Origin: a virus
Strand: one strand, 5' to 3'
Length of the DNA: 20,704 bases
Virus record (IMG/VR): IMGVR_UViG_3300045999_001572
Coordinates: 1-20,704 of that record
Part shown: positions 2,363 to 20,704 of the stretch, piece after piece
How positions within the stretch are numbered: the first letter of the stretch is position 1
Layout: each line of letters starts with the position of its first letter
The notes under the pieces: model-generated
The model's input: only the letters and a program-made list of their open reading frames with translations
Databases searched by the model: none
Told to the model about the DNA's origin: nothing
Made by a program: the position numbers and the translations under genes

Positions 2363-2655
2363 TGTCTAAAACAACTATTGTAGATATCAATACTGGTAAA
2401 ATCACAACACAAGACTGGACTCAAGAAGAAATTGATGCCAGAAAAGAAAGATTTTTACCAGCACAATGGAAAAATTTACGTGAACACCGCAACAAACTCT
2501 TAATAGAGAGCGATAGTATGCTTCTTATAGATAGATGGAATTTACTTTCTGAATCTAAAAAACAAGAATGGTTAAATTATAGACAATCTCTAAGAGATTT
2601 GCCAGACGATATTACTGATCCTTTCAACGTAACTTGGCCAACAAAACCAGAGTAA
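2362..2655 (+). CDS. Tail fibre assembly chaperone-like protein (copy 1)
   Basis: A 97-residue protein whose ATG overlaps the fibre stop (TAATG); a double stop, TAATAA, ends it. Its C-terminal two thirds has the pattern typical of small phage tail assembly chaperones (Phage_tail_APC-like): LREHRNKLL near 39-47, then D..LLIDRW, and YRQSLRDLPDDITDPFNVTWP near 73-93. It shares LR..R...L.E.D......DRW...YRQ.LRDLPD...DPFN.TWP with the 98-residue protein at 9280-9576, so the two are paralogues, each directly behind a long fibre gene. Inferred role: folding or trimerisation helper for the fibre just upstream, perhaps retained on the fibre tip. The family match is from memory of the motif. Confidence 0.8.
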   Translation: MSKTTIVDINTGKITTQDWTQEEIDARKERFLPAQWKNLREHRNKLLIESDSMLLIDRWNLLSESKKQEWLNYRQSLRDLPDDITDPFNVTWPTKPE

Positions 2656-3000: not shown

Positions 3001-3323
3001 TGCCAGGCGCACATAGAGATACAGATAGCAGATTTTGTGGAGCAAAGACTAAAGCTGGTGGGCAAGGAACTGTAAGAGTAAACGGTCTTCTTTGGGCAGT
3101 AGAAGGCGATGTTGACACTCACTGCGATCAAGGATCATTAAGTGCAGTTTATGGCGCACTAAACGTTCGCATCGAAGGGAAACTCGTTATTTGTGCAATG
3201 GGAGACATGGCTGCTCCAGATAAGCTAGGTTGCTTCATCAAACATCCAACAGGTGCTACAAATCCAAAAGGACATTCAAACGATGTAATCGTATACGGAG
3301 GAGCTGCTGGCGGCGGTTCATGA
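3000..3323 (+). CDS. PAAR-like baseplate spike tip protein
   Basis: A 107-residue protein starting at a TAATG overlap and ending in an ATGA overlap with the next gene. It is rich in Gly, His and Cys. A segment reading GGQGTVRVNGLLWAVEGDVD (20-39), followed by THC (40-42), matches the PAAR pattern of small beta-turns with V.VNG..A..GD. Candidate metal ligands are His5, Cys13, His41, Cys42, Cys65, Cys78 and His82. PAAR proteins cap the trimeric spike of contractile machines as a sharp metal-bound cone; T4 gp5.4 has this role. Neighbouring fibre and baseplate-like genes fit. The literal Pro-Ala-Ala-Arg string is not present, so this is a PAAR-like, not canonical, tip. Confidence 0.75.
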   Translation: MPGAHRDTDSRFCGAKTKAGGQGTVRVNGLLWAVEGDVDTHCDQGSLSAVYGALNVRIEGKLVICAMGDMAAPDKLGCFIKHPTGATNPKGHSNDVIVYGGAAGGGS

Positions 3324-3655
3324 CTTGGTATTTCAATGAGATTGTTCGCTCAGGCAACTCACAGGCAAGAATCAAGAACTATTATCCAGACACAGGGTTA
3401 ATAGTTCTTTATGATATAAAGGGAGTCATAGAAGCTGGCTCAACCATTGTTGGTGATGAATCTGGAACAACAACAACTTTAACGAATTTTGTTATTGCAA
3501 GAGAGTTTGATTTAGGATATGAACCAGATTATTGGGACTATATACTAGAGAATGGAATTTATGACGATAGTGGCGACTTCATTGCCCTTGATGCTCACTT
3601 CACAGGCAAACCAAGTCAAGATTATCAGACAACTTATTGGATTGTATTAGGTTAA
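3320..3655 (+). CDS. Small structural protein with a VYQG-type beta repeat
   Basis: 111 residues. The open frame extends back to 3230, but the ATG at 3320 overlaps the PAAR stop (ATGA) and the upstream part reads as a Lys/Arg/Cys-rich shadow of the PAAR gene, so 3320 is chosen. It starts MTWYFNEIVRSGNSQARIKN. Residues about 15-55 (ARIKNYYPDTGLIVLYDIKG, then STIVGDESGTTTTL) align without gaps to the second half of the beta domain found in the C-terminal regions of gp14 and gp15. The rest is acidic and aromatic (YEPDYWDYILENGIYDD). Its stop overlaps the start of the big fibre gene (TAATG). Role unknown; from the context, probably a baseplate or fibre-attachment component. Confidence 0.7.
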   Translation: MTWYFNEIVRSGNSQARIKNYYPDTGLIVLYDIKGVIEAGSTIVGDESGTTTTLTNFVIAREFDLGYEPDYWDYILENGIYDDSGDFIALDAHFTGKPSQDYQTTYWIVLG

Positions 3656-6600
3656 TGGCAGTAGCAATTTCAAATTTAACGGCTTATTGGGCAACATCAG
3701 CCAGCAGTGTGAATACTGCTATCAAAATGAATGCCAATGATGTTGTATCAGCGGCAAATTCTAAGTTACTAGATTTACAAGTCAATGATGTTTCTAAGTT
3801 TGTTGTATTTAAAAGCGGAAACACTGTTGCAAACGGAATTATAGTAGCAAATTCGTTTGTTACATCTGGCGGAATAAATCTCATCTCTGCTATTCAAACT
3901 ATCAATGTTGGCAGTGGTGATATCGGTCCTGCCTTCTTTCAAGCCAATCAAGCGTTTTCTCAAGCTAATCAGGCTTTTGCTGCCGCCAACTCATCTTCTC
4001 CTCAATCAATTGGCGATGCGTTTGGTCAAGCCAACCTTGCGTTTGCCAAAGCCAATGCAGCTAATGTTCTAGCATTTAACACAGGTGCAGGCGCTAATGC
4101 ATGGACTAATACTGTTTATGGCTTTATCAACACATACACTCAAACCGTAGGTACCGCTGGTAATGCTTATGCGAGAGAAGTTGGCACAGCAGGTAATGTT
4201 TATGCGAGAACAGTCGGTACAGCAGGTAACGTTTATGCAAGAGAAGTTGGCACTGCTGGAAATACATATACTCAGACTGTCGGCGCTGCATCAAATAGCT
4301 ATGCAGACTCTCTATTTGCATCATCAGGCGGATCAGCAGGACAAGCATTTAATAAAGCTAACACTGCCAACATTACAGCCGATCAAGCATTTAATAGAGC
4401 TAACGCAGCCAACGTTCTAGCTTTTAACTCTGCCGCAGGGGCTAATGCATGGACTAATACTGTTTATGGATTCATCAATACATATACTCAAACAGTTGGT
4501 ACTGCTGGAAATACTTATGCTCAGAGCGTTGGTGCAGCATCTAATCTACTAGTTGGTGCTGCTTTCTTTCAAGCTAATCAAGCCTTTGCTGTTGCTAATA
4601 CTTCTGGCGCTGAAGCTGAAGGTGCCTTCTTCCAAGCTAATCAAGCATTTAATACTGCCAATACAGCGGCAGCAAACGCTTTAGGTGCGTTTACAAGATC
4701 AAATGTTGCATGGTTTCATGCTAATGCTGCCTTCTTCCAGGCAAATCAAGCTTTTGCTGAAGCCAACACTGCTGAAACATCAGCTTCGGCAGCATTCAAT
4801 AAAGCTAATTCCGCCAATGTTCTAGCGTTCAATAGTGCTGCTGGTGCTAACGCATGGACCAATGCTGTTTATGGATTTACTAATACTTACATACAAACAG
4901 TAGGTGCTGCATCTAATCTATTAGTTGGCGCTGCTTACTCTCAAGCCAATCAAGCGTTCAACACCGCAAATACAGCGGCAGCAAACGCTCTAGGCGCTTT
5001 CTCTAGATCAAATATAACATTTACTCATGCCAATGCTGCTTTCTCACAAGCTAATCAAGCTTTTGCTGTTGCTAATACTGCTGGCGCTGAAGCTGAAGGT
5101 GCCTTCTTCCAAGCTAACCAGGCTTTTGCACTAGCCAATGCTGCTAACGTTCTTGCGTTCAATGCTTTGCCAAAAACTGGCGGCACTATAACTGGTAATG
5201 TTTCTATAGTTGGAAATCTTTTCATATCAGGCAATAGTCAGTTTCAAAATGTAACTACATTGTCTATTGGTGATCCACTAATCTATCTGGCCGCAAATAA
5301 CTATTCTTCTGATATTGTAGATATCGGTTTTATTGCAAATTATGTAAACTCCACTGGTTCTAATGTTCATACGGGTCTATATCGTGAACATGAAAACAAG
5401 ATGTATTACTTGTTCCAAGGATACGATAAAGAACCTGTTGATAATCATATTGGAGCGTTATCTAACAATATGACATTGGCTGTTCTTAACGCAGATTTGA
5501 TCACATCAAATCTTGTATTAGGCGGCATAAACGCTATATCTTGGATATCAGGAGCATTTACAAGAGCTAACACTGCCAATATTACAGCCGATCAAGCATT
5601 TAATAGAGCTAACGCAGCCAACGTTCTAGCATTCAATAGTGCCGCTGGCGCCAATGCTTGGGTTAATACAGTTTATGGATTTACTAATACTTACATACAA
5701 ACAGTTGGTACTGCATCTAATGTCTGGTCTAACACAATCGGTGTATATGCAAATGCTTATGCAAACGTTATTGGAACAAGATCAAATAACTATGCTCTAT
5801 CTATTGTTGGTCCAGCATTCAATCAGGCCAATTCTGCTAATGTTCTAGCATTCAATAGTGCTGCTGGCGCCAATGCTTGGGTTAACACAGTATATGGATT
5901 TACTAACACATATACACAAACAGTAGGTGCAGCAAGTAATTCACTGGCGGTAGCGGCATTCTCTCAAGCTAATCAAGCTTTTGCACAAGCAAACACATCT
6001 TCTCCACAAACAGTTGCAGATGCTTTTGGACAAGCCAATCAAGCTTTTGCTCAAGCCAATGCTGCTAACGTTCTAGCATTTAACAGTGCTGCTGGTGCTA
6101 ATGCGTGGGCTAATACAATTGGTGTAAATGCCAATGCTTACGCAAATGTTATTGGAACAAGATCAAATAACTATGCTCTATCTATTGTTGGTCCAGCTTT
6201 TAATAAAGCTAATGACGCTAATGTTTTAGCATTTAACTCTGCCGCTGGTGCTAATGCATGGACTAACACTGTTTATGGACTAAGTAATACGTTTACACAT
6301 ACTATTGGCGGCGCAGCTTTTGGTCAAGCCAACTTAGCTTTTGCCAGAGCCAATGGTAGTTTTAATCAGGCTAATCAAGCTTTTGCTTTAGCCAATGCCG
6401 CTAACGTTCTAGCATTTAATGCTTTACCTAAAACTGGTGGAACTGTTACAGGCGATCTTATTCTAACAGGCACCACTATTCTAATTAACAATTCGGCTGG
6501 CGCTGGTGGCACAGATGAAGGCGGTGAAATAAAACTTGCAAATCCTACATCAAATTCTATCCTTTCTGGTCCAATTGCTATTGACATTTATCAAAATAGG

Positions 6601-9270
6601 ATTCGTTTCTTTGAAACAAATAGTCCTAATCGCGGAGCATTTATCAATCTAGCTTCTACTAGTGCTGGTGCTGCTACCGATCTTCTAGCGTCACCATCAG
6701 CAACAGATACAGTAGCTAGAAATTCGGCAGGTGCAGCATTTGATAAAGCTAACGCTGCCAACGTTCTGGCATTCAATGCTCTTCCAAATACAAACGGCGT
6801 AGTATTTAATGGAACTTTAACTGCGAGTGCAAATCTTTCAGCAGATAAAATAATATCGACAAACAACGGCAATGGTGAAAACTTCAGACTTGGTGATGAT
6901 GCTTGGATCGGCGATACAAATATTGCTAATGCTTTTCGTATTAAAGGTCAACAAAACGCATCAATTGGTTACGTTATATTTGGACCAAACGACGGCAAAC
7001 TTTTAGGTCGTGATGGTACAGGCCCCCTAACATATGACGGCAACAATGTTTGGCACGCTGGTAATGATGGAACGTCTTCGGGTTTAGATGCCGATCTGCT
7101 TGATGGTCAACAAGGTTCATATTACGCCATAGCTACTGATAGTGCTAATGCATTCAATAAAGCCAATGGTGCCAACGTTTTAGCATTCAATAGTGCTGCT
7201 GGTGCCAATGCTTGGGCTAACACAATAGGCATATATGCAAATGCTTATGCAAACGTTATTGGAACAAGATCGAATAACTTTGCTCTTTCTCTTGGAACTC
7301 AGTTTGATAGTATCAACACTTATGTTTTGAACACAGGTACTGCTGTTAATGCTTATGCAAACGTTATTGGAACAAGATCAAATAACTATGCTCTATCCAT
7401 TGTTGGTCCAGCATTTGATAAAGCCAACTCAACGACATACACATCAAATGTAGTAATTTCTGTTACTGATAACACTAATGCGGCACTAAGAATTACTCAG
7501 ACAGGTACTGGTGATGCAGTAAGAGTGGAAGACAGTGCAAATCCAGATAGCACTCCATTCGTCATTACGGCAACAGGTGATGTTGGTATTGGTGTAACAT
7601 CTCCCGATACAAAACTCGCAGTTGTAGGTAGTGGTCAAGGACTCAATTTTAATACTGCCGATAATCTTGGCGCATCAATTCTTGTTGGTGATAGCGGAAC
7701 AGCAGCTCAAAATGGTGGTTCAATTGTATTCTCTGCATTTTCTGAAGCATGGAAATTTGCTGCTATTAAATCACATGTTTTAAATGGCACATCAAATACA
7801 GTAGGCGACATTTCTATTCTTACTCGTCGTGTCACGACAGATTCAACATTAACAGAAACAGCGAGATTTACATTTACAGGTAACGTTGGTATAGGAACAA
7901 ATAATCCGCAATACAAACTTGACGTTTCTGGCGCAGTAAATGCTTCGGCCTTTCTAATTAATGGTATTCCTGCTCTTCCAAATACATCTGGCATTTCTTT
8001 TAATGGAAATCTAAATTTTCCAAATGGTAATGTATCTATCGGTTCAACCACATCAGAAGGTCTTCTAACTCTTAGAGGTTATACTGGAGGCACTGTAGGT
8101 TCTGTTGTCGATAATTTTACAAAAACTCTTGTTATCGGTGGCGCTTATAATCAACCTTATAATTCAGGCAATACAGTACTACTTCACATATTAGACTATG
8201 ATAATGATACTGGTTCTGATGTTTATCCTGTCTACATTGAAGATGAAAACAACATTGTTGACTTTTTCATAAACGCAGGAAATAACGGAACAATTAGCAC
8301 GAAAAAAGTATATGTTGGAGGAAATTTAGGTATTGGCATTACATCTCCAACATCTAAGTTGCATGTTTCTGGCACAGCAAATATTACCTCTTCACTAGAA
8401 GTATTAGGATCAAACATAACATCTGCAATTGCAGCAGGCAACACGTTTACACATACTATTGGTGGCGCAGCATTTTTCCAAGCTAATCAAGCCTTCGCTG
8501 ATGCTAATACTGCTGAAACATGGGCAGCAGGAGCCTTCTTAAGAGGTAACGTTGCATGGCTTCATGCCAATGCAGCATTCTTCCAAGCTAATCAAGCCTT
8601 CGCTGACGCTAATACTGCTGAAACATGGGCAGCAGGAGCCTTCTTAAGAGGTAACGTAGCGTTTAGTCAAGCAAATCAGGCATTTGCTGTTGCGAATGCG
8701 GCACTACCTTCTTCATCGTATACAGCAGCAGATGTTTTAAGCAAATTATTGACTGTTGATGGTACAGGATCATTATTAGATGCCGATCAGCTGGACGGTT
8801 GGCATCAGTCAGAACTTGGAGGAAAACAGTTAGCAGCCGCTTCTGTAGGAACAGGTACTACGGCAGATTATAGTTGGGTTACTGCAGGATCTATAAATTG
8901 GTCAGGGCCGGCACCTGTTCATCTTAGTGTTATGCTTAGAGGTCTGAGTCATGGCGCAGCAACTTCTCAGCCACTTAGGATTCAGTTTTCGGATGATAAG
9001 GGTGTAACGTTTACGACAGCAATAAACATTTCTCCGCCTGTTGCGGCTTCTACAGCATTAAACGGACACATACTTGTTTACAGACCATCTGCAACAACAT
9101 CAACTAAAGTTATAGTATGGAATACAAGCCCACAAGATCGCTCTAGTTCAAATGTAGGAACATGGGAACTTCCAGGCGCTGGCGGCACGGCAGCATTGTC
9201 TAATGTTAGATTTGGTTTTGCTTCTGGTAATTTTGACGCAGGAACAGTTTATGTCTATGCTTATAGTTAA
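3655..9270 (+). CDS. Giant tail-fibre-like structural protein with Ala-Phe-Asn heptads
   Basis: 1871 residues from the ATG at 3655 (TAATG overlap); an ATG at 3637 lies inside the previous gene and is less likely. After a roughly 90-residue N-terminal region (MAVAISNLTAYWATSASSV...), helical AFxxANx heptads dominate, with ANVLAFN occurring 11 times. Set between them are beta domains: about 5175-5530 (TGGTITGNVSIVGNLFISGN to NADLITSNLVLGG), 6430-6730, 6780-7120 (ends GLDADLLDGQQGSYY), 7440-7660 (ALRITQTGTG, VEDSANPDSTP, GIGVTSP), 7660-7990 (VGIGTNNP) and 8030-8390 (GIGITSP). The tip, 8701-9270, has LLDADQLDGWHQS and a beta-rich end. DADxLDG and GIGxTSP motifs are frequent in phage fibres. Likely a trimeric fibre that alternates coiled-coil shaft and beta knobs. 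No S74 chaperone domain is seen; a chaperone gene follows. Confidence 0.87.
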   Translation: MAVAISNLTAYWATSASSVNTAIKMNANDVVSAANSKLLDLQVNDVSKFVVFKSGNTVANGIIVANSFVTSGGINLISAIQTINVGSGDIGPAFFQANQAFSQANQAFAAANSSSPQSIGDAFGQANLAFAKANAANVLAFNTGAGANAWTNTVYGFINTYTQTVGTAGNAYAREVGTAGNVYARTVGTAGNVYAREVGTAGNTYTQTVGAASNSYADSLFASSGGSAGQAFNKANTANITADQAFNRANAANVLAFNSAAGANAWTNTVYGFINTYTQTVGTAGNTYAQSVGAASNLLVGAAFFQANQAFAVANTSGAEAEGAFFQANQAFNTANTAAANALGAFTRSNVAWFHANAAFFQANQAFAEANTAETSASAAFNKANSANVLAFNSAAGANAWTNAVYGFTNTYIQTVGAASNLLVGAAYSQANQAFNTANTAAANALGAFSRSNITFTHANAAFSQANQAFAVANTAGAEAEGAFFQANQAFALANAANVLAFNALPKTGGTITGNVSIVGNLFISGNSQFQNVTTLSIGDPLIYLAANNYSSDIVDIGFIANYVNSTGSNVHTGLYREHENKMYYLFQGYDKEPVDNHIGALSNNMTLAVLNADLITSNLVLGGINAISWISGAFTRANTANITADQAFNRANAANVLAFNSAAGANAWVNTVYGFTNTYIQTVGTASNVWSNTIGVYANAYANVIGTRSNNYALSIVGPAFNQANSANVLAFNSAAGANAWVNTVYGFTNTYTQTVGAASNSLAVAAFSQANQAFAQANTSSPQTVADAFGQANQAFAQANAANVLAFNSAAGANAWANTIGVNANAYANVIGTRSNNYALSIVGPAFNKANDANVLAFNSAAGANAWTNTVYGLSNTFTHTIGGAAFGQANLAFARANGSFNQANQAFALANAANVLAFNALPKTGGTVTGDLILTGTTILINNSAGAGGTDEGGEIKLANPTSNSILSGPIAIDIYQNRIRFFETNSPNRGAFINLASTSAGAATDLLASPSATDTVARNSAGAAFDKANAANVLAFNALPNTNGVVFNGTLTASANLSADKIISTNNGNGENFRLGDDAWIGDTNIANAFRIKGQQNASIGYVIFGPNDGKLLGRDGTGPLTYDGNNVWHAGNDGTSSGLDADLLDGQQGSYYAIATDSANAFNKANGANVLAFNSAAGANAWANTIGIYANAYANVIGTRSNNFALSLGTQFDSINTYVLNTGTAVNAYANVIGTRSNNYALSIVGPAFDKANSTTYTSNVVISVTDNTNAALRITQTGTGDAVRVEDSANPDSTPFVITATGDVGIGVTSPDTKLAVVGSGQGLNFNTADNLGASILVGDSGTAAQNGGSIVFSAFSEAWKFAAIKSHVLNGTSNTVGDISILTRRVTTDSTLTETARFTFTGNVGIGTNNPQYKLDVSGAVNASAFLINGIPALPNTSGISFNGNLNFPNGNVSIGSTTSEGLLTLRGYTGGTVGSVVDNFTKTLVIGGAYNQPYNSGNTVLLHILDYDNDTGSDVYPVYIEDENNIVDFFINAGNNGTISTKKVYVGGNLGIGITSPTSKLHVSGTANITSSLEVLGSNITSAIAAGNTFTHTIGGAAFFQANQAFADANTAETWAAGAFLRGNVAWLHANAAFFQANQAFADANTAETWAAGAFLRGNVAFSQANQAFAVANAALPSSSYTAADVLSKLLTVDGTGSLLDADQLDGWHQSELGGKQLAAASVGTGTTADYSWVTAGSINWSGPAPVHLSVMLRGLSHGAATSQPLRIQFSDDKGVTFTTAINISPPVAASTALNGHILVYRPSATTSTKVIVWNTSPQDRSSSNVGTWELPGAGGTAALSNVRFGFASGNFDAGTVYVYAYS
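4561..4854 (+). repeat. Run of 14 uninterrupted 21-bp (heptad) coding repeats
   Basis: Read from 4561, the codons fall into 14 successive seven-residue units, mostly of the form A-F-x-x-A-N-x: AFFQANQ, AFAVANT, SGAEAEG, AFFQANQ, AFNTANT, AAANALG, AFTRSNV, AWFHANA, AFFQANQ, AFAEANT and so on to SAAGANA. Ala at positions 1 and 5 gives 4-3 spacing as in coiled coils, with Phe next to the first Ala and Asn at position 6. Similar runs occur elsewhere in both fibre genes, broken by short phase shifts. Confidence 0.85.
5752..7413 (+). repeat. Dispersed ~67-bp repeat family in the giant fibre gene
   Basis: Three near-identical copies, at about 5752-5818, 6133-6199 and 7348-7413, encode NAYANVIGTRSNNYALSIVG followed by PAF. 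They differ by a few third-position changes, such as TAT/TAC and AAC/AAT. A partial copy near 7240-7290 switches to the NNFALSLGTQF variant, which is also found in the first fibre gene. Confidence 0.8.
8467..8657 (+). repeat. Tandem 105-bp period repeat near the fibre tip
   Basis: Bases 8467-8552 and 8572-8657 are 86-bp copies with two mismatches by eye, offset by 105 bp, which is exactly five heptads (35 residues). They encode FFQANQAFADANTAETWAAG and then AFLRGNVA. The exact heptad multiple keeps the coiled-coil register. Confidence 0.88.
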
Positions 9271-9279
9271 GGAATAAAA

Positions 9280-9576
9280 ATGACAAAATACTTTCACACT
9301 GTAATTACATTAGATGGAGTTTTTGAAGTTCCTTTTACTCAAGAAGAAGCGACTGAAAGAGAATTACAAGAATTTCATGCTACTTGGGCAGGTCTAAGAT
9401 TTGAAAGAGATCAGAAGCTACAAGAAACTGACGTTTTGGTCTTGCCTGATCGTTGGATGAGATATACTCCAGAAAAGCAACAGGCCATATCAGATTATCG
9501 ACAAGCTCTCAGAGATTTGCCAGATACAGTAGAAGATCCATTCAATTTTACATGGCCAGAACCACCTAACATATAA
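9280..9576 (+). CDS. Tail fibre assembly chaperone-like protein (copy 2)
   Basis: 98 residues, nine bases after the giant fibre gene, with an AAGGA ribosome site overlapping that gene's stop. The C-terminal region has LRFERDQKLQETD near 39-51, DRWMRYTPEKQQ, and YRQALRDLPDTVEDPFNFTWP near 72-92. This mirrors the copy at 2362-2655 in the conserved LR..R...L.E.D, DRW and YRQ.LRDLPD...DPFN.TWP positions, while the N-terminal 35 residues differ. This fits a shared folding domain with a client-specific N-terminus (inference). It is the last gene of the fibre module; a late promoter box sits at its stop codon. Confidence 0.8.
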   Translation: MTKYFHTVITLDGVFEVPFTQEEATERELQEFHATWAGLRFERDQKLQETDVLVLPDRWMRYTPEKQQAISDYRQALRDLPDTVEDPFNFTWPEPPNI

Positions 9577-10343: not shown

Positions 10344-11216
10344 ATGGCAACCTCAAATTATTTCAACAATTTTAATCCAGCAACGACAAACGAAAATCTT
10401 TTACTAGAGGATTTGATTGTTGAATCTATTCAAATTATGGGACATGACGTTCAGTATCTTCCTAGAGAAGTATATGATTCTGCTGATGATGTATTAGGCG
10501 AGAGTGTCAATTCCAAATTTAGTCGTGCATACAGAATGGAAATGTATCTAGCCAACGTTGAAGGTTATGAAGGCGACGGCGACTTCTTCTCTAAGTTTGG
10601 TCTAGAAATTCGTGATACATCAAACTTTGTTATTTCTCGTAGAACGTTTGAAAGATATGTTCCAAAAACTATCGCTATCAGACCTCGCGAAGGCGATCTG
10701 ATCTATGTTCCTTTGTTAGCTAAAATTTTTGAAATCAAGTTTGTTGAAGAAGAACTGCTATTCTTCTCACTAGGCAAGCGTAATCCTTATATATATGAAT
10801 TGCGCTGTGAAGTCTTCCGTTATAGCAACGAAGACTTTGAGACAGGAGATGATGCAATTGACGCGATTGAACATTCTTCTGGATATACCATTCAGCTTAC
10901 ATTTGGCAGCGGATCTGGCAATTACATTCTTGACGAAAATGTTTATCAGGGAGCAAATCTTGCTTATGCTACAGTGGTTGCCGAAGTCAAGCATTGGATT
11001 CCAGAAAACAAGATTTTGGAAGTTGTAAACATCAAGGGAGCGTTTAGTAATACTCTACCTGTCATTGGTGTCACATCAAACACTCGTTATACTCTAACAA
11101 GCAGTGATGATTTGGCAGACTTGGTTGATTATGATGATAGTGATAACAGAGTTATTCAAAATGAGGCCGCTACATTTATTGATTTGAGTGAAATTAATCC
11201 ATTTGGAGTTCCATAA
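10344..11216 (+). CDS. gp14: Neck protein gp14 with extra C-terminal VYQG domain
   Basis: 290 residues against about 256 in T4. The N-terminal part (LEDLIVESIQIMGHDVQYLP, residues 21-40, then REVYDSADDVLGE) and SKFGLEIRDTSNFVISRRTF are typical of T4-like gp14. Residues about 189-255 form a beta domain (NYILDENVYQGANLAYATVV ... GAFSNTLPVIGV) which aligns without gaps to one in gp15. This insertion could account for the greater length. The C-terminus returns to a gp14-like FIDLSEINPFGVP. In T4, gp14 works with gp13 as a collar and head-tail joining part. Its stop overlaps gene 15 (TAATG), which suggests coupled translation. Confidence 0.93.
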   Translation: MATSNYFNNFNPATTNENLLLEDLIVESIQIMGHDVQYLPREVYDSADDVLGESVNSKFSRAYRMEMYLANVEGYEGDGDFFSKFGLEIRDTSNFVISRRTFERYVPKTIAIRPREGDLIYVPLLAKIFEIKFVEEELLFFSLGKRNPYIYELRCEVFRYSNEDFETGDDAIDAIEHSSGYTIQLTFGSGSGNYILDENVYQGANLAYATVVAEVKHWIPENKILEVVNIKGAFSNTLPVIGVTSNTRYTLTSSDDLADLVDYDDSDNRVIQNEAATFIDLSEINPFGVP

Positions 11217-12223
11217 TGCTATCAAGTCAATACTTTTATCATCAGCTAACTCGTAAGTATGTTATTCTTTTTGGTAATATGTTCAATACTATTACCGTAA
11301 TGAGAAAGAACAAGGAAACTGGCAGTGAAATAGAACGCTTTAAAGTGCCTATCGTATATGCTCCAAAAGAAAAGTACTTTTCACGACTAAGAGCGGATCC
11401 TGATTTGAACAGACCTATTCAGGTTTTGCTTCCTCGCATGTCGTTTGAACTTGTTGGCTTTCAATACGATGCTACCAGAAAACAAAACTCTCTAATAAGA
11501 AATAGTAGTGCAAATACTTCAACCAAGTTTGCAACTCAGTATATGGGTGTACCATACAATCTATCTTTCGATCTTCAAATATATGCTCGTAATGTGGACG
11601 ATGGTACCCATATTGTTGAGCAAATTTTACCTTATTTTGCTCCTGGTTATACGATCACGGCCAATGTTATTCCTGAGATGGACTTTCTCAAAGACATTCC
11701 TATTGTTTTGAACAACGTAACAAACACTATTGAACATGAAGGTAACTTTGACTCTGTTAGATATGTTTCATGGACACTCAACTTTACAATGAAAACATAC
11801 TATTTTGGTCCAGTTGCCACTCAGGGTATCATCAGAAAAGTCTTTACAAATATCTATCATGATGATAGTCTTCAAGCAGGATCTATTGTTCGTGTTAACA
11901 CAAACAACGGAAATAATGGAACATATAAGATAGATGATACTGTCTATCAGGGCGGTAACTATCAGACTGCTACAGCATTCGGTAAAGTATTTGCATGGAA
12001 TGCAAACACAGGCAAGCTTGTGATTACAGGCGCACAAGGTACGTTTACGACAAACAGTAAGATTATAGCGGTATCTACGAATGCTTCTTACAATCTTTCA
12101 TCTTTTGAAGCAGCTCCGCTCAAGTTGGTTGAGATCAAGATTGAACCTAATCCTATTGATGCTGAACCTGAAGATGATTACGGATATACAACAACTATTA
12201 CAGAGTGGCCTAATACAATATGA
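11216..12223 (+). CDS. gp15: Tail completion / sheath stabiliser gp15 with extra VYQG domain
   Basis: 335 residues against about 272 in T4. The start is at a TAATG overlap, with GGAG (11205-11208) upstream. MLSSQYFYHQLTRKYVILFG (1-20), NTITVMRK, PIVYAPKEKYFSRLRADPDL and LPRMSFELVGFQYDATRKQN are hallmarks of T4-like gp15. It continues with MGVPYNLSFDLQIYARNVDD and WTLNFTMKTYYFGPV. Residues about 234-297 are a beta domain shared with gp14 (VYQG at 243-246), followed by a short LVEIKIEPNP tail. In T4, a gp15 hexamer caps the tail tube and sheath and contacts the neck. The gene ends in an ATGA overlap with gene 16. Confidence 0.94.
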   Translation: MLSSQYFYHQLTRKYVILFGNMFNTITVMRKNKETGSEIERFKVPIVYAPKEKYFSRLRADPDLNRPIQVLLPRMSFELVGFQYDATRKQNSLIRNSSANTSTKFATQYMGVPYNLSFDLQIYARNVDDGTHIVEQILPYFAPGYTITANVIPEMDFLKDIPIVLNNVTNTIEHEGNFDSVRYVSWTLNFTMKTYYFGPVATQGIIRKVFTNIYHDDSLQAGSIVRVNTNNGNNGTYKIDDTVYQGGNYQTATAFGKVFAWNANTGKLVITGAQGTFTTNSKIIAVSTNASYNLSSFEAAPLKLVEIKIEPNPIDAEPEDDYGYTTTITEWPNTI

Positions 12224-12657
12224 GTAAGACACATGATGCGCTAAGTGAAGCTCTTGGTATAGAATCTTCAAAAAGTGTGGAAATTATACCGCCGAAGAAA
12301 GAACAGGAAGTTACAGTCAATACTCCGCATGAGGAAGATGACATAAAAGCCGACTATAATCTTTCTCGCAGAACTTTTCGTGATTTGATTAGTAAAGGCA
12401 ATCAAGCTATTGAAGGCATTACCGACTTGGCTAAAGAGTCGGAAAGTCCAAGAGCATATGAAGTTTTGGCTACACTTATGAAAACTGTGGCAGATACAAC
12501 CAAAGACCTTTACGATTTGCAGAAGAAGACTAAAGACCTTAAAGATAATGGCAAAAAAGAAGAAACTACTGTAACAGTTGAAAAAGCAGTGTTTGTTGGC
12601 AGTACAGCCGAATTACTTCAACGAGTTAAAGAAGAGAAGAGAAATGAAAAGCTTTAA
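12220..12657 (+). CDS. gp16: Small terminase subunit gp16
   Basis: 145 residues against 164 in T4; it starts within the gene 15 stop (ATGA). The N-terminus has LSEALGIE (8-15), found in T4-type small terminases, followed by a charged linker. A central helical region (LSRRTFRDLISKGNQAIEGI, 48-67, then AYEVLATLMKTVADTTKDLY, 79-98) matches the oligomerising coiled-coil core. The tail is Lys/Glu-rich with LLQRVKEEKRNEKL. It binds DNA ends and regulates the gp17 packaging motor. Unlike T4, gene 17 does not follow at once: three genes come between, and the first of them starts inside the last 14 bases of this gene. Confidence 0.92.
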   Translation: MSKTHDALSEALGIESSKSVEIIPPKKEQEVTVNTPHEEDDIKADYNLSRRTFRDLISKGNQAIEGITDLAKESESPRAYEVLATLMKTVADTTKDLYDLQKKTKDLKDNGKKEETTVTVEKAVFVGSTAELLQRVKEEKRNEKL

Positions 12658-13177
12658 ACAGTTTATAAAAGAGTCCGTCGGTTCTTCGCTTTCACAGTGG
12701 AAAAATGAAGAACCTGTCAAATATACCGAGCATCTTCAAAAGTTTTTTGGTAAACCAGACGAATTGACCGCTAATAGAGCAGTATGGTATGATGTAGACG
12801 GATTCAAGAGAATTGAAGTGTTAGATGAGTATATTCTACACTCTTCGCCTGTGCCACACTACGACTATGTTTATTCTTATGTTGATCTAAAAGTTCCACA
12901 TAAGTTGTCAAATGCTTTGGCAGATAGCAGCGAGAGCATTCTTCTTGATCATCTTAAAGGTGAAGTTGGCGCGAGATGTGCAAGTCTAAGCGCAAATGCA
13001 GTTACAATACAGTATGTGCTAGATGTGGTAGAAGGTAACGTTAAACCAAGTAAAGAAGAATATGAGTCTCGCATCAAGTCAATGAAGGCGATGTTTAAGA
13101 ATGGTAAAAAGTATGAACTTGATTGGTGGCCAGATGAGACGGGTGACGCTGATCCAAAGAATCCATATTATAAATGA
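12644..13177 (+). CDS. Putative capsid-targeted internal protein, family unknown
   Basis: 177 residues from the ATG at 12644. The frame extends back to 12578, but that part only shadows gene 16; the internal ATG gives the conserved N-terminus MKSFKQFIKE|S and has purine-rich GAAGAGAAGAG upstream. This decapeptide matches the T4 capsid-targeting sequence pattern MKTYQEFIAE|A, with the cleavage site [IL]-x-E of prohead protease gp21 after Glu10. The mature part contains FFGKPDELTANRAVWYDVDG (34-53), HSSPVPHYDYVYSYVDLKVP (66-85) and a helical region ending in ELDWWPDETGD. I do not recognise a domain. Inferred role: packaged in the capsid and ejected with DNA. The function of the mature domain is unknown. 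Confidence 0.8.
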   Translation: MKSFKQFIKESVGSSLSQWKNEEPVKYTEHLQKFFGKPDELTANRAVWYDVDGFKRIEVLDEYILHSSPVPHYDYVYSYVDLKVPHKLSNALADSSESILLDHLKGEVGARCASLSANAVTIQYVLDVVEGNVKPSKEEYESRIKSMKAMFKNGKKYELDWWPDETGDADPKNPYYK

Positions 13178-13186
13178 GACAATCAA

Positions 13187-13594
13187 ATGAAAACTTTTAG
13201 AGAGTTTATATTAGAACAAGCAGAACATCCTGGTGGAGTAGAAGCTACTGCTGGTGTTGGATTTGGACTAGGAAAAGAACAACAAAGATATAGATTTAAA
13301 GTTTCCGAACTAATAAAACACGCTCAAGACAAAAAAACTAAAGCGTTGAAAGTTGATTCCCTGGCAAAGAGAACATTAGGAAATCGTGAAGGCGAATCAA
13401 AAGAAAGCGAAACAAAAAGAGTTCAAAATGCCAGCCTAGAACATCCTATTATTACAACTCGTCATCCTGAACACGGTCATGTTGTCTTAGACGGAACTCA
13501 TAGACTACAAAAAGCAAGAGATGCTGGACATGAGACTATTCAAGCAAGAAATATTCCATGGCGCGAAATGAAAAGATACAGAATAAAAGAATGA
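13187..13594 (+). CDS. Putative capsid-targeted protein with ParB/sulfiredoxin-like core
   Basis: 135 residues; the ATG lies nine bases after the previous stop. The N-terminus MKTFREFILE|Q matches the capsid-targeting pattern, with an [IL]-x-E cleavage site after Glu10. A Gly-rich linker follows (VEATAGVGFGLGKE). Residues about 37-122 look like a ParB/Srx fold: FKVSELIKHAQ at the start, then HPIITTRHPEHGHVVLDGTH (86-105), then RLQKARDAGHETIQARNIP. DG-x-HR followed by A...G...I.AR is the usual strand-loop-helix core of ParB-like nucleases and related nucleotide-binding proteins. Being short, it holds little beyond tag plus core. Activity (nuclease, CTP or ATP use, DNA binding) cannot be judged. 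It ends in an ATGA overlap with the next gene. Confidence 0.78.
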   Translation: MKTFREFILEQAEHPGGVEATAGVGFGLGKEQQRYRFKVSELIKHAQDKKTKALKVDSLAKRTLGNREGESKESETKRVQNASLEHPIITTRHPEHGHVVLDGTHRLQKARDAGHETIQARNIPWREMKRYRIKE

Positions 13595-14328
13595 AAACGT
13601 TTCGTCAGTTTATCAGAGAACAAAAAGAAAGTATAGCACCTCAAGGAGTAATCTTTAAAGGTAATAAAATTGCTTTTGTCGGCGAAGAACATGGCACTCC
13701 AATAAAGTTGAATCCTGATATTCTGCGAAGAGTTCAAGATATTGGTAAGAAATATGGTTATTGGTACGAAGGTAGTGGTGGCGGCGCAGACAATAACAAG
13801 AAAATTTTTGGTAATAGAAGTAACTATGAAGGATCTTGGGACGATGAGTTTAGAAAAGAAATTGATGGTTATCCAATAGAGTTCATTTATACATTATTTT
13901 CTAATCCTGAGGTTAATGGTCAAAAAGAATCATTAATTGATCTAAAACTTTCCATATTTGACAGCATTCTAAAGAATCAAAAGAAGTTCTCTTTCTTCAA
14001 AGATAGAGAGTATGGTTCAGCAGAGTTAAAAGAGTTTTTAACCAAAGCAAGTGAATCTCACACGAACTTTATAGAATTAAGCAGCCAACCAGCAACAAAA
14101 GAAAATGTTGCATCTTTCATTGACAAAGGTGACAAGCTAATGTGGCCGAAGAACTGGGAAGAGTATCCAAATAATGCTGGTAAACTTGCAAAAAAAGCAA
14201 ATGATATGAGAGATAATTATCTGTTGAGTAGAACAGAAGGAGTTTATTTTGCTGGTTCAGGACATCTAAAAGACCTTATTGATCTTGATAGTTCTTTAAA
14301 ATTGATTGGCGGAGAAAAGATTGAGTAA
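13591..14328 (+). CDS. Putative capsid-targeted TraB/ChaN/EreA-fold protein
   Basis: 245 residues from the ATG at 13591 (ATGA overlap). The open frame begins at 13558, but that would add 11 residues ahead of the conserved MKTFRQFIRE|Q tag, so the later start is chosen. After the tag comes KIAFVGEEHGT (26-36), then a 170-residue helical middle. The C-terminal pattern is MRDNYLL with Arg207, followed by GVYFAGSGHLKDL with GSGH at 222-225. A first G-E-x-H, a late Arg-containing helix and a final hydrophobic strand ending G-x-G-H form the signature of the TraB/PrgY/TIKI, ChaN and erythromycin-esterase-like superfamily (hydrolases or metal-binding enzymes). The fold match is by motif only. Inferred role: an enzyme carried in the capsid and injected on infection. 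Its last eight bases overlap the gene 17 start. Confidence 0.75.
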   Translation: MKTFRQFIREQKESIAPQGVIFKGNKIAFVGEEHGTPIKLNPDILRRVQDIGKKYGYWYEGSGGGADNNKKIFGNRSNYEGSWDDEFRKEIDGYPIEFIYTLFSNPEVNGQKESLIDLKLSIFDSILKNQKKFSFFKDREYGSAELKEFLTKASESHTNFIELSSQPATKENVASFIDKGDKLMWPKNWEEYPNNAGKLAKKANDMRDNYLLSRTEGVYFAGSGHLKDLIDLDSSLKLIGGEKIE

Positions 14329-15985
14329 AGGTTACAATAACAATCCAAATCTTCCAAAAGAAGATTACAAACATGCTTTCTCTCAGCAAGAGCTAGACGA
14401 GTTTATAAAGTGCGCTGACGATCCTGTATACTTTGCCACAAAATACATGAAGATCATCAACGTTGATCATGGTCTTATGCCATTTCGCATGTGGGACTTT
14501 CAGAAAGACATGCTCAATACGTTTCATGAGAATCGCTTTTCCATCTGTAAACTTCCACGTCAGGTCGGTAAGACAACTACATCTGTTGCATTTTTATTAC
14601 ACTACATTCTGTTCAATGAAAATGTAAACGTAGCCATTCTTGCCAACAAGGCCGCAACAGCCCGCGAAATCATGGGTCGTCTACAGTTAGCTTTTGAATA
14701 TCTACCGCGCTTTCTACAGCAGGGCGTCAAAGAATGGAATAAAGGTTCTATTGAACTGGCAAATGGATCTCGCGCTCTTGCGGATTCTACTTCTGGCAGC
14801 TCTGTTCGTGGTCGTTCCTTTAACGTAGTATTCCTTGACGAGTTTGCGTTCGTTCCGAACAATATTGCCGAAGCATTCTTCATGTCGACCTATCCTACTA
14901 TTTCTTCTGGTCAGACAACAAAAGTTATTATCGTTTCCACTCCCAATGGACTCAATCAGTTCTATCGTATGTGGACAGAATCAGTTGAACATCGCTCTGA
15001 TTATGTTCCTGTAGAAATTCACTGGAGTATGGTACCAGGTCGCGACGAGGCGTGGAAAGAGCAGACTATTCGTAATACGTCCGAAGATCAGTTCAGACAA
15101 GAGTTTGAGTGTGAGTTTATTGGTTCTACAAACACTCTTATTCATCCTGCCAAGTTGAGATCGCTGGTCTGGTTAAATCCAGTTCGTCATGATGGATTCA
15201 TGGACATTTATAAAGAACCCGAAGCAGGACGCACTTATACGATGACAGTAGATGTGGCCGAAGGTCAGGGTCTAGATTACTCGACGTTTTCTATATTTGA
15301 TGTTACAGAAATACCTTATAGGCAAGTTGCTAAATACAAAAACAATAAGATTACTCCACTGCTATTTCCAACAATCATTCTGCAAGCTGCAAAGATGTAT
15401 AATGAGGCATTTGTTCTGGTGGAAATCAACTCAATTGGACTTCAGGTAGCCGACATTCTACATTTTGAACTGGCTTATGACAATCTGATAAAGATTCAAG
15501 CTAAAGGTAAACAAGGTCAGCAGTCTACACCAGGATTTACCAAAAAGATCGCTTATGGTCTTAAGACTTCGGTCCAGACGAAAAACATCGGATGTGCCAA
15601 TCTCAAGACGCTAATCGAAAGTGATAAACTTATTATAAACGACAAAGACACAATTTCAGAGCTGATGACCTTTTCTTCTGACAAGAAGAGTTTCAAGGCA
15701 GAAGAGGGCAATACTGACGATTTGGCTATGACTTTGGTACATTTTGGATGGCTTACCGCTCAAAGATACTTCAAAGAAAACATTAAAAACGACATACGAC
15801 AAACTCTGCAAGAAGAGCAATTGAACTTACTGGATCAAGATATTATGCCTTTTGGCGCCATATCTGGATATCAAGGTAATGATACGAGCATGGATTATGA
15901 ACTAGATGAGAATGGTAATGTATGGTTTGAGGATAGAAGCAAAAGATATCCTTGGGACGACTTAAATTGGAAAGTTAAACTGTAA
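14321..15985 (+). CDS. gp17: Large terminase subunit gp17 (ATPase-nuclease)
   Basis: 554 residues using TTG at 14321, which has GGAG (14311-14314) six bases upstream. An earlier TTG at 14306 has no ribosome site. ATPase domain: Walker A LPRQVGKT (78-85), Walker B VVFLDEF (169-175) and coupling motif STPNG (206-210). Nuclease domain: TVDVAEGQGLDYS with Asp311, VLVEINSIG with Glu368, and the acidic pair Asp466/467 in NTDDLAMTLVHFGWLT, matching the RNase H-like metal site of T4 gp17. All catalytic positions are present, so it appears functional. It powers DNA packaging into the prohead through portal gp20 and cuts the concatemer. T4 gp17 is 610 residues; this one is shorter, mainly at the C-terminus by eye. 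Confidence 0.96.
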   Translation: MSKGYNNNPNLPKEDYKHAFSQQELDEFIKCADDPVYFATKYMKIINVDHGLMPFRMWDFQKDMLNTFHENRFSICKLPRQVGKTTTSVAFLLHYILFNENVNVAILANKAATAREIMGRLQLAFEYLPRFLQQGVKEWNKGSIELANGSRALADSTSGSSVRGRSFNVVFLDEFAFVPNNIAEAFFMSTYPTISSGQTTKVIIVSTPNGLNQFYRMWTESVEHRSDYVPVEIHWSMVPGRDEAWKEQTIRNTSEDQFRQEFECEFIGSTNTLIHPAKLRSLVWLNPVRHDGFMDIYKEPEAGRTYTMTVDVAEGQGLDYSTFSIFDVTEIPYRQVAKYKNNKITPLLFPTIILQAAKMYNEAFVLVEINSIGLQVADILHFELAYDNLIKIQAKGKQGQQSTPGFTKKIAYGLKTSVQTKNIGCANLKTLIESDKLIINDKDTISELMTFSSDKKSFKAEEGNTDDLAMTLVHFGWLTAQRYFKENIKNDIRQTLQEEQLNLLDQDIMPFGAISGYQGNDTSMDYELDENGNVWFEDRSKRYPWDDLNWKVKL

Positions 15986-18703: not shown

Positions 18704-20425
18704 ATGGCAGTTCAGCTATTCGGCTTTGAGATAGGTCGTAAAAAACAGCAAGACAAAGACGAACAAAGTAAGACTTTTGCGTTACCGCCCAATGATGATG
18801 GCGCGGTAACAATACAGTCTGGCGCTTATTATGGTACATATGTTGATCTAGATGGCACAGTTCGTAATGAAGTCGAACTGATTACCCGTTATAGAGAAAT
18901 GTCTATGCAGCCAGAACTTGAAACTGCAATTGATGAAATTGTTAATGAAGCGATTGTTCAAGATGATGACGGTAAGGCGGTCGAGATTAACGATGATAAT
19001 CTCAAGCAAAATGCTGCAATCAAGAAAAAAATCCAAGAAGAATTTAATTACATACTGAAGTTGCTTAATTTTGGTAACATGGGACATGATATTTTCCGTC
19101 GTTGGTACATTGACGGTCGTATGTTCTATCATATCGTAATTGACGAAAAAAGTCCTAACAAAGGCATTCAAGAGCTAAGATACATTGATCCTCGCCGTAT
19201 TCGCAAAATTCGTGAAATCCAAAAAGTTAAAGAACCTGGATCAGGCATAGAAGTTATCAAAAGAATTAACGAATACTACCTATACAATGAACGTGGTATT
19301 ATTGGAGCGCATTCAAATCTAGGCACAAAGATTGCTGTAGATTCTATTGTTAACGTTAATTCAGGACTAATGGACGCCAAACGTTCAATGGTCTTATCTT
19401 ATTTACACAAAGCAATCAAGCCTCTCAATCAGCTTAGAATGGTTGAAGATGCTGTTGTTATCTACAGACTCTCACGCGCACCCGAGCGCAGAGTGTTTTA
19501 TGTGGACGTTGGCAACATGCCAACAGTAAAGGCTGAACAATATCTCCGCGATATTATGGTAAAGTATCGCAACAAATTAGTGTACGATTCAAATACTGGC
19601 GAAATTAAAGACGACCGTAAGCATCTTTCAATGCTGGAAGATTTCTGGTTACCTCGTAGAGAAGGTTCTAGAGGAACTGAAATTACAACATTGCAGGGCG
19701 GTCAAAATCTTGGCGAATTAGAAGACGTTAAATATTTTGAAAAGAAGCTATATAAAGCTCTTGGCGTTCCTATTTCCAGACTAGAACAGCAACAAGGTTT
19801 TTCTCTTGGTCGCACAACAGAAGTTACTAGAGATGAACTTAAGTTTAATAAGTTTGTTCAGAGACTTCGTTCAAAGTTTTCTACACTGTTTGATGATCTT
19901 CTTCGCGTACAACTTGTTCTCAAGAAAGTATGTTCAGAAGATGAATGGAACGAGTTTAAAGAAGAAATCTGGTACGATTTCAAGAAAGACAACAACTTTA
20001 CAGAACTAAAAGAAGCTGAACTTCTTCAAAATAGACTATCGATGTTACAGCTTATTGATCCATATGTTGGACGTTACTATTCAACTGAATGGGTTCGTAA
20101 GAAAGTTCTCATGATGGACGACGAAGAAATTGAAGAAGTCATGCAGCAAATTGAAAATGAAAAAGCTGCCGATGTACCTACCGATGATCAAGGTAATCCA
20201 TTGCCGCAGCAAGCAGGTGCACCTGTACCAAACATTGTTCCTCCAACACCACAGGAACAAATGATGCAGCAATATGCAGCACAACAAGGTGTGCCTCCTG
20301 AACAAATGCCTGTTCAAGATGGTACAGGCAAAGATCAGATGAATCCATTAGATATGGGAACAGATGCTCAACAAATGAGAAATCGTCAAAGATTTGTAAA
20401 TGATACTTTGGAGCCAGCTAGATAA
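18704..20425 (+). CDS. gp20: Portal vertex protein gp20
   Basis: 573 residues from the ATG at 18704, which has GGAG (18694-18697) six bases upstream; the frame could begin at a TTG at 18692, but that overlaps the ribosome site. T4 gp20 is 524. Landmarks: ITRYREMSMQPELETAIDEI (60-79) then VNEAIV, ELRYIDPRRIRKIREI (157-172), RAPERRVFYVDVGNMP (258-273), EDFWLPRREGSRGTEITTLQ (312-331) and LGVPISRLEQQQGFSLGRTT (353-372). These are conserved in T4-like portals. The added length is a Pro/Gln-rich C-terminal tail (about 490-573). The dodecamer sits at one vertex, nucleates the prohead, docks gp17 and later the neck. The stop overlaps the next start (TAATG). Confidence 0.96.
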   Translation: MAVQLFGFEIGRKKQQDKDEQSKTFALPPNDDGAVTIQSGAYYGTYVDLDGTVRNEVELITRYREMSMQPELETAIDEIVNEAIVQDDDGKAVEINDDNLKQNAAIKKKIQEEFNYILKLLNFGNMGHDIFRRWYIDGRMFYHIVIDEKSPNKGIQELRYIDPRRIRKIREIQKVKEPGSGIEVIKRINEYYLYNERGIIGAHSNLGTKIAVDSIVNVNSGLMDAKRSMVLSYLHKAIKPLNQLRMVEDAVVIYRLSRAPERRVFYVDVGNMPTVKAEQYLRDIMVKYRNKLVYDSNTGEIKDDRKHLSMLEDFWLPRREGSRGTEITTLQGGQNLGELEDVKYFEKKLYKALGVPISRLEQQQGFSLGRTTEVTRDELKFNKFVQRLRSKFSTLFDDLLRVQLVLKKVCSEDEWNEFKEEIWYDFKKDNNFTELKEAELLQNRLSMLQLIDPYVGRYYSTEWVRKKVLMMDDEEIEEVMQQIENEKAADVPTDDQGNPLPQQAGAPVPNIVPPTPQEQMMQQYAAQQGVPPEQMPVQDGTGKDQMNPLDMGTDAQQMRNRQRFVNDTLEPAR

Positions 20426-20704
20426 TGAAGAAGTATGAAGAGTTCATCGCTGAATCTTTAGCTGCTGAGATTAAGTCAGAACCTAAATCAAATGCATCAA
20501 GAGAAGCTAGAAGACTCGGTCTAACTTATGTAGGATTTGGACGTTATGCTGATAATAAAGGACGAGTTGCATATCTTGTAGATAATGATAGACTTGTTCC
20601 TTTTAAATCGCAAGAAGATGTACAAGGAATGTACAAAAAGGCACGTGAGATGCCATCTTCTGAATCAACTAAAGCCTTAGAAGCACAAGCCTCCTCTCTT
20701 CCTC
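20425..20704 (+). CDS. Putative capsid-targeted prohead/internal protein, 3'-truncated by window edge
   Basis: The ATG lies in a TAATG overlap with the portal stop, and the frame stays open to the window end (93 residues visible). The N-terminus MKKYEEFIAE|S closely matches the T4 capsid-targeting sequence MKTYQEFIAE|A, including FIAE before the expected gp21 cut. Residues 31-60 (LGLTYVGFGRYADNKGRVAY, then LVDNDRLVPF) resemble a short Y-x-G-F-G-R-Y motif that I have seen in other T4-like virion proteins. After it come charged, Ser/Ala-rich helices. In T4 the gene after 20 is 67, a prohead core protein, so a scaffold-core or internal protein is likely. Homology to gp67 itself is not visible. 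Confidence 0.75.
   Translation, partial: MKKYEEFIAESLAAEIKSEPKSNASREARRLGLTYVGFGRYADNKGRVAYLVDNDRLVPFKSQEDVQGMYKKAREMPSSESTKALEAQASSLP

What the first reader, a model, noticed from the sequence alone, without database searches (positions are those of the whole stretch)
13591..14328. TraB/ChaN/EreA-like enzyme carrying a capsid-entry tag
Seen: GEEHGT near the N-terminus (31-36), then Arg207 and GSGH (222-225) in a hydrophobic strand near the C-terminus, directly after MKTFRQFIRE. Known: this G-E-x-H ... R ... G-x-G-H layout marks the TraB/TIKI, ChaN and erythromycin-esterase-like fold, which includes peptidases and proposed toxin domains. Inference: an enzyme of this fold ejected with phage DNA would be an unusual early effector, perhaps acting on a host peptide, haem or small molecule.
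Basis: partly seen in the sequence, partly recalled or inferred. Interest (0 to 1): 0.75.

Follow-up and report, generated by a model that had tools for sequence, protein, structure and literature searches.

The report
Phage head-cargo protein resembling TraB enzymes
A T4-like aquatic phage carries a gene for a protein bearing the tag that loads proteins into the phage head, followed by a widespread but undescribed phage domain whose invariant residues match the TraB/TIKI enzyme superfamily; it is probably an enzyme injected into the host with the phage DNA, but its target is unknown and no activity has been shown.

Summary
Its first ten residues (MKTFRQFIRE) match the T4 internal-protein capsid-targeting sequence (MKTYQEFIAE). 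Two neighbouring ORFs inserted between genes 16 and 17, and the ORF at the gene-67 position, carry the same kind of tag (4 in the window, 0.1 expected). The domain has no Pfam, PHROG, NCBIfam or INPHARED-phage relative above noise, but IMG/VR holds about 200 relatives: free-standing, tagged, or fused to ART, NUDIX, ParB-like or amidoligase domains, often in head/packaging regions. In 99 distinct sequences G31xxH34, E60, R207 and G222xxH225 are (near-)invariant. Spacing and layout are those of the TIKI/TraB superfamily. Profile-profile comparison with bacterial TraB/PrgY proteins aligns R207 and H225 in register (probability 66%, E 6e-5; decoys far lower, but 14-61% with more sequences). The top PDB fold match is a TraB-family chain, not significant on its own; nothing matched ChaN or EreA. 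Best reading: head-packaged, injected TIKI/TraB-like hydrolase, a new family of a known superfamily. Catalysis and target are inferred.

The parts
13591..14328 (+). Gene for CTS-tagged TraB/TIKI-like protein, 245 aa (28.0 kDa; 26.7 kDa if cut after E10)
13591..13620 (+). Capsid-targeting sequence MKTFRQFIRE (residues 1-10), predicted prohead-protease cut after E10
   Evidence: PMC9026906 on residues 4, 7, 8, 10 of T4 IPIII
13681..13692 (+). First GxxH motif (GEEH, residues 31-34); G31 and H34 98/99
13768..13770 (+). Invariant Glu60, 26 residues after His34, directly after a predicted strand (57-59)
14209..14211 (+). Invariant Arg207, aligned in register with the invariant Arg of TraB/PrgY proteins
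14254..14265 (+). Second GxxH motif (GSGH, residues 222-225) at the end of the last predicted strand; G222 and H225 99/99
13187..13594 (+). Neighbouring CTS-tagged ORF (MKTFREFILE) with a DGTHR ParB/sulfiredoxin-like motif; similar domains are fused to the TraB-like domain in other contigs
12644..13177 (+). Neighbouring CTS-tagged ORF (MKSFKQFIKE), unknown function, absent from some relatives
12220..12657 (+). Terminase small subunit (gp16); in T4, genes 16 and 17 overlap with nothing between them
14306..15985 (+). Terminase large subunit (gp17)
20425..20704 (+). ORF at the T4 gene 67 (prohead core) position, also with a CTS-like start MKKYEEFIAE; runs off the window

Best explanation
The gene encodes an internal head protein. 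The N-terminal ten residues carry it into the prohead core, the phage's gp21-type protease probably removes them after Glu10, and the mature 235-residue domain is injected with the DNA. The domain is a new phage family of the TIKI/TraB superfamily; His34, Glu60, Arg207 and His225 are proposed to form a hydrolytic site that cuts a peptide or ester bond in a host target early in infection. Shown here: the ORF, the tag-like N-termini, family conservation, domain fusions and genomic contexts. Supported but not proven: superfamily membership. Inferred: packaging, cleavage, injection, catalysis and target.
For: Tag: MKTFRQFIRE vs T4 IPII/IPIII MKTYQEFIAE; four tagged starts in the window against 0.1 expected; tag kept in the T4-like relatives L001-L009, L029, L030, L082, L083. 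Domain: G31, H34, E60, R207, G222, H225 (near-)invariant in 99 distinct sequences. His34 to Glu60 is 26 residues; the same pair is 24-26 apart in TraB sequences read here, 28 in ChaN, and 28 in RRSP and Bcr135 (PMC6254334). hhalign vs five TraB/PrgY-type proteins: probability 65.8%, E 5.7e-5, Arg and GxxH in register; score 38.4 against at most 23.2 in 60 column-shuffled controls and 22.8 over 46 unrelated families. Fold search: the top PDB row for the window protein, and the highest TM listed in both searches, is 7w5z_E/8b6h_DQ, deposited as 'TraB family protein'; two giant-virus proteins named TraB are among the top seven viral rows. Effector context: fusions with ART-PolyVal, NUDIX, amidoligase, ParB-like DGxHR; position in head/packaging regions in several lineages.
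Against: Fold matches are insignificant one by one (PDB E 1.6, TM 0.30-0.34, prob 0.08) and no ChaN, EreA, PMT or RRSP structure was found. The profile match covers only the C-terminal 66 columns and fell to 14-61% when four more TraB sequences were added; against 30 mostly GumN-type TraB proteins it was 4%. The first Glu of the 2His/2Glu motif of RRSP is missing. Three-dimensional clustering of the residues was not measured. No virion proteomics or activity data exist for this phage.
Confidence: 0.6

Rival explanations
1. The domain is head cargo but not an enzyme: a TraB-like or other fold used for binding, for example blocking a host defence protein the way T4 IPI blocks a restriction enzyme.
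For: T4 IPI is an injected restriction-enzyme inhibitor (PMC9026906, PMC3012670); PMT shows that TIKI-fold proteins can lack the catalytic set (PMC6254334); the first Glu is missing here.
Against: H34, E60, R207 and H225 stay invariant at about 40-45% identity and in very different fusions, which is more typical of an active site than of a binding face in an arms race.
Confidence: 0.2
2. The fold is unrelated to TIKI/TraB and the GxxH/E/R/GxxH layout is convergent.
For: No significant fold match in the PDB; no Pfam or PHROG hit.
Against: Profile match with controls, TraB proteins near the top of both fold libraries, zero of 200,000 shuffles.
Confidence: 0.25
3. The protein acts in head assembly or DNA packaging inside the producing cell rather than as an injected effector.
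For: In several lineages the gene lies beside terminase or portal genes; T4 prohead-core and scaffold proteins are also cut by gp21 (PMC9026906).
Against: L029 has it in a nucleotide-metabolism region, still with the tag; fusions with ART, NUDIX and ParB-like domains resemble polyvalent-effector architectures (PMC5512222); absent from the cultured phage records searched.
Confidence: 0.15

Closest known systems
T4 internal proteins IPI/IPII/IPIII and Alt (CTS-directed head cargo)
   Same: N-terminal ten-residue tag with aromatic residues at 4 and 7, Ile at 8, Glu at 10; T4-like gene order around it
   Different: Unrelated mature domain; coded between genes 16 and 17, which overlap in T4; not basic (pI about 5.8 if cut)
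TIKI/TraB superfamily (TraB/PrgY/GumN, Pfam PF01963; TIKI proteases; RRSP)
   Same: Two GxxH motifs, Glu 24-28 residues after the first His, Arg ahead of the second GxxH, strand-helix-strand-Glu order
   Different: Below every Pfam threshold; shorter Arg-to-GxxH distance (18 vs 26-29); unique conserved GSWDD and FxNxxxN stretches; no first ExH Glu
Polyvalent proteins of phages (Iyer et al. 2017, PMC5512222)
   Same: Some relatives are domains of large proteins with ART-PolyVal, NUDIX, amidoligase or ParB-like domains, next to terminase/portal genes
   Different: In the window it is a single-domain protein with a CTS; text searches of that paper found no mention of TIKI, EreA, TraB or erythromycin esterase
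ChaN / erythromycin esterase (PF04187 / PF05139)
   Same: C-terminal GSGH strand aligns in register with ChaN at low probability
   Different: No conserved GExH Glu, no fold match, no significant profile match to Ere

Membership tests
TIKI/TraB superfamily | Two GxxH motifs at strand ends, one N-terminal and one C-terminal | tested here: met
   G31/H34 and G222/H225 at 98-99 of 99; predicted strands 27-32 and 217-222
TIKI/TraB superfamily | Conserved Glu 24-28 residues after the first motif His | tested here: met
   E60, 26 after H34, 98/99; 24-26 in TraB, 28 in ChaN
TIKI/TraB superfamily | Conserved basic residue ahead of the second GxxH | tested here: met
   R207 99/99, aligned to TraB Arg by hhalign
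TIKI/TraB superfamily | Sequence-profile relationship to known members | tested here: inconclusive
   Probability 66% with five PrgY-type sequences, 14-61% with nine, 4-8% with GumN-type TraB and ChaN; decoys well below
TIKI/TraB superfamily | Shared fold | tested here: inconclusive
   TraB-family chain is the top PDB row with one model and best listed TM with both, E >= 1.6, TM <= 0.34
TIKI/TraB superfamily | Catalytic residues cluster in space | not testable with these tools
   No coordinates are returned
TIKI/TraB superfamily | Hydrolase activity | not testable with these tools
   Needs bench work
Pfam PF01963 TraB_PrgY_gumN | Score above the curated cut-off | tested here: not met
   No hit for the protein or nine members
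ChaN / EreA families | GExH motif with conserved Glu two residues before His; fold match to ChaN/Ere | tested here: not met
   Position 32 is E in 8 of 99; no fold hit
T4-type CTS internal head protein | N-terminal ten-residue CTS with determinants at 4, 7, 8, 10 | tested here: met
   F4, F7, I8, E10
T4-type CTS internal head protein | Present in the virion, cleaved by gp21 and ejected | not testable with these tools
   Needs proteomics

The most novel reading that the evidence does not exclude
Phages package and inject a TIKI/TraB-type peptidase that cuts a host protein, perhaps a defence component, at the start of infection; the same module is shuffled between single-domain CTS cargo and large polyvalent proteins, from which prohead-protease sites (QGVAE linkers flanking it in L045 and L108) release it inside the head.
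Probability: 0.25. Interest if true: 0.8.

Novelty: new variant of a known kind. Interest (0 to 1): 0.58.

Why it matters
It gives a defined, testable family of probable injected phage effectors (about 200 uncultured-virus members, none found in the cultured-phage collection, in PHROGs or in 398 bacterial genomes) with a named candidate active site, and it links T4 head-cargo targeting to the polyvalent-effector world. If active, it would add a TIKI-type hydrolase to the known weapons delivered with phage DNA.

Tried and rejected
Pfam, NCBIfam, PHROGs and PDB sequence searches with single proteins and family profiles gave nothing usable. INPHARED tblastn with four different members: no match. 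Cellular homologues: none in genome contigs with two peptide patterns and 0 of 398 Pseudomonadota genomes (no positive control in that search). Global profile alignment was uninformative. Ere profiles did not align even with TraB or ChaN, so that comparison has no power. Foldseek with a second, shorter member (L068, pLDDT 90.5) did not improve PDB matches. The idea that Glu32/33 is catalytic was rejected on conservation. ChaN-like haem binding was not pursued: no fold or profile support. A simple terminase/portal neighbour count (47 of 180 loci) uses only a few reference proteins and misses other structural neighbours, so it is a lower bound.

Full report
Observation. The ORF at 13591-14328 is as described: 245 aa, GEEHGT at 31-36, Arg207, GSGH at 222-225. 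Relatives share the 13591 start and lack the upstream ATG; dN/dS is 0.08-0.10. The window is a 20.7 kb uncultured-virus record with the T4 late order: head-tail and sheath genes, gp16, gp17, gp18, gp19, gp20. Its gp20 is at best 56% identical to cultured phages, nearest the Synechococcus myoviruses.

Tag. Three ORFs inserted between genes 16 and 17 start MKSFKQFIKE, MKTFREFILE and MKTFRQFIRE, and the ORF after gp20 starts MKKYEEFIAE; shuffled sequence gives 0.1 such starts per window. T4 IPII and IPIII, read here, start MKTYQEFIAE. In T4 the first ten residues suffice for head targeting, with residues 4 and 7 for targeting and 8 and 10 for processing (PMC9026906); all four are met. In T4, genes 16 and 17 overlap, so the three tagged ORFs look like an inserted cargo block, and parts of it come and go between relatives.

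Family. No library knows the domain, and four members found nothing in 50,697 phage records. IMG/VR gave 91, 184 and 199 relatives in successive scans. BFVD has one close relative, an uncultured Caudovirales protein (E 4.5e-24, TM 0.85). In 99 distinct sequences the polar residues that never or almost never change include H34, E60, S82, D84, N105, N109, N172, R207 and H225.

Superfamily. Active TIKI proteins have a His and Glu in the N-terminal part, an Arg, and a second His (PMC6254334: RRSP E3900, H3902, E3930, R4001, H4030; Bcr135 H85, E113). Here H34 to E60 is 26 residues; in the TraB sequences read here it is 24 and 26. The pattern arose in 0 of 200,000 shuffles of the invariant columns. 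Profile comparison with five PrgY-type TraB proteins gave probability 65.8%, E 5.7e-5, with Arg on Arg and GxxH on GxxH. That score, 38.4, exceeds 60 column-shuffled controls (maximum 23.2) and 46 unrelated families (maximum 22.8), and also exceeds ChaN against the same TraB set (33.5). Adding four sequences lowered it to 14-61% depending on the query alignment, so I call it support, not proof.

Structure. Two models are confident (pLDDT 88 and 90.5). Predicted order is strand-GxxH-helix-strand-Glu ... helix with Arg-strand-GxxH-helix. PDB matches are all insignificant, but the first row for the window protein, and the best listed TM in both searches, is the Tetrahymena complex IV chain 7w5z_E/8b6h_DQ, whose deposited name is TraB family protein (also PMC10060162). 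In BFVD an unnamed Edafosvirus protein (prob 0.97) and two giant-virus proteins named TraB are in the top seven rows. ChaN, EreA, PMT and RRSP did not appear. Residue clustering was not measured.

Context. Relatives occur as single domains and in large proteins with ART-PolyVal (L018, below Pfam's cut-off), NUDIX (L043), amidoligase (L106), DUF6321 (L031) and DGxHR ParB-like domains (L047, L048, L108). A DGTHR protein is also the immediate tagged neighbour in the window. In several non-T4 lineages the gene lies next to terminase, portal or major head genes; L029 has it in a nucleotide-metabolism region but with the tag. In L045 and L108 the domain is flanked on both sides by QGVAE linkers, frequent in some of these contigs and absent for the reversed pattern; they fit a prohead-protease xxE site, which is inference.

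Verdict. Head-packaged, probably injected TIKI/TraB-like hydrolase; a new family in a known superfamily, in a known delivery class. Target, activity and packaging remain to be shown.

Noticed in passing
L045 ORF 2-718; L108 ORF 3-3224; L103 ORFs 3286-7059 and 11160-12545: Repeated QGVAE(G/D/S) linkers, flanking the TraB-like domain exactly in L045 and L108; possible prohead-protease sites that cut head polyproteins into domains.
   Followed up: partly
window 13187-13594: CTS-tagged DGTHR ParB/sulfiredoxin-like protein directly upstream; weakly similar to ParB-annotated proteins of Erwinia jumbo phages and to domains fused with the TraB-like domain.
   Followed up: partly
window 20425-20704: ORF at the gene 67 position begins with a CTS-like peptide, MKKYEEFIAES.
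   Followed up: partly
window 3637-9270: 1877-aa ORF built of many near-repeats (FxQANQAFAxANxA, GANAWTNTVYGF), probably a fibre, without a Pfam match.
   Followed up: no
window 2362-2655 and 9280-9576: Two copies of a tail assembly chaperone domain (PF16778), one after each fibre-like ORF.
   Followed up: no
L106 5125-10794: 1890-aa protein with TraB-like and amidoligase domains and a nucleotidyltransferase-like N-terminus (the last by eye).
   Followed up: no
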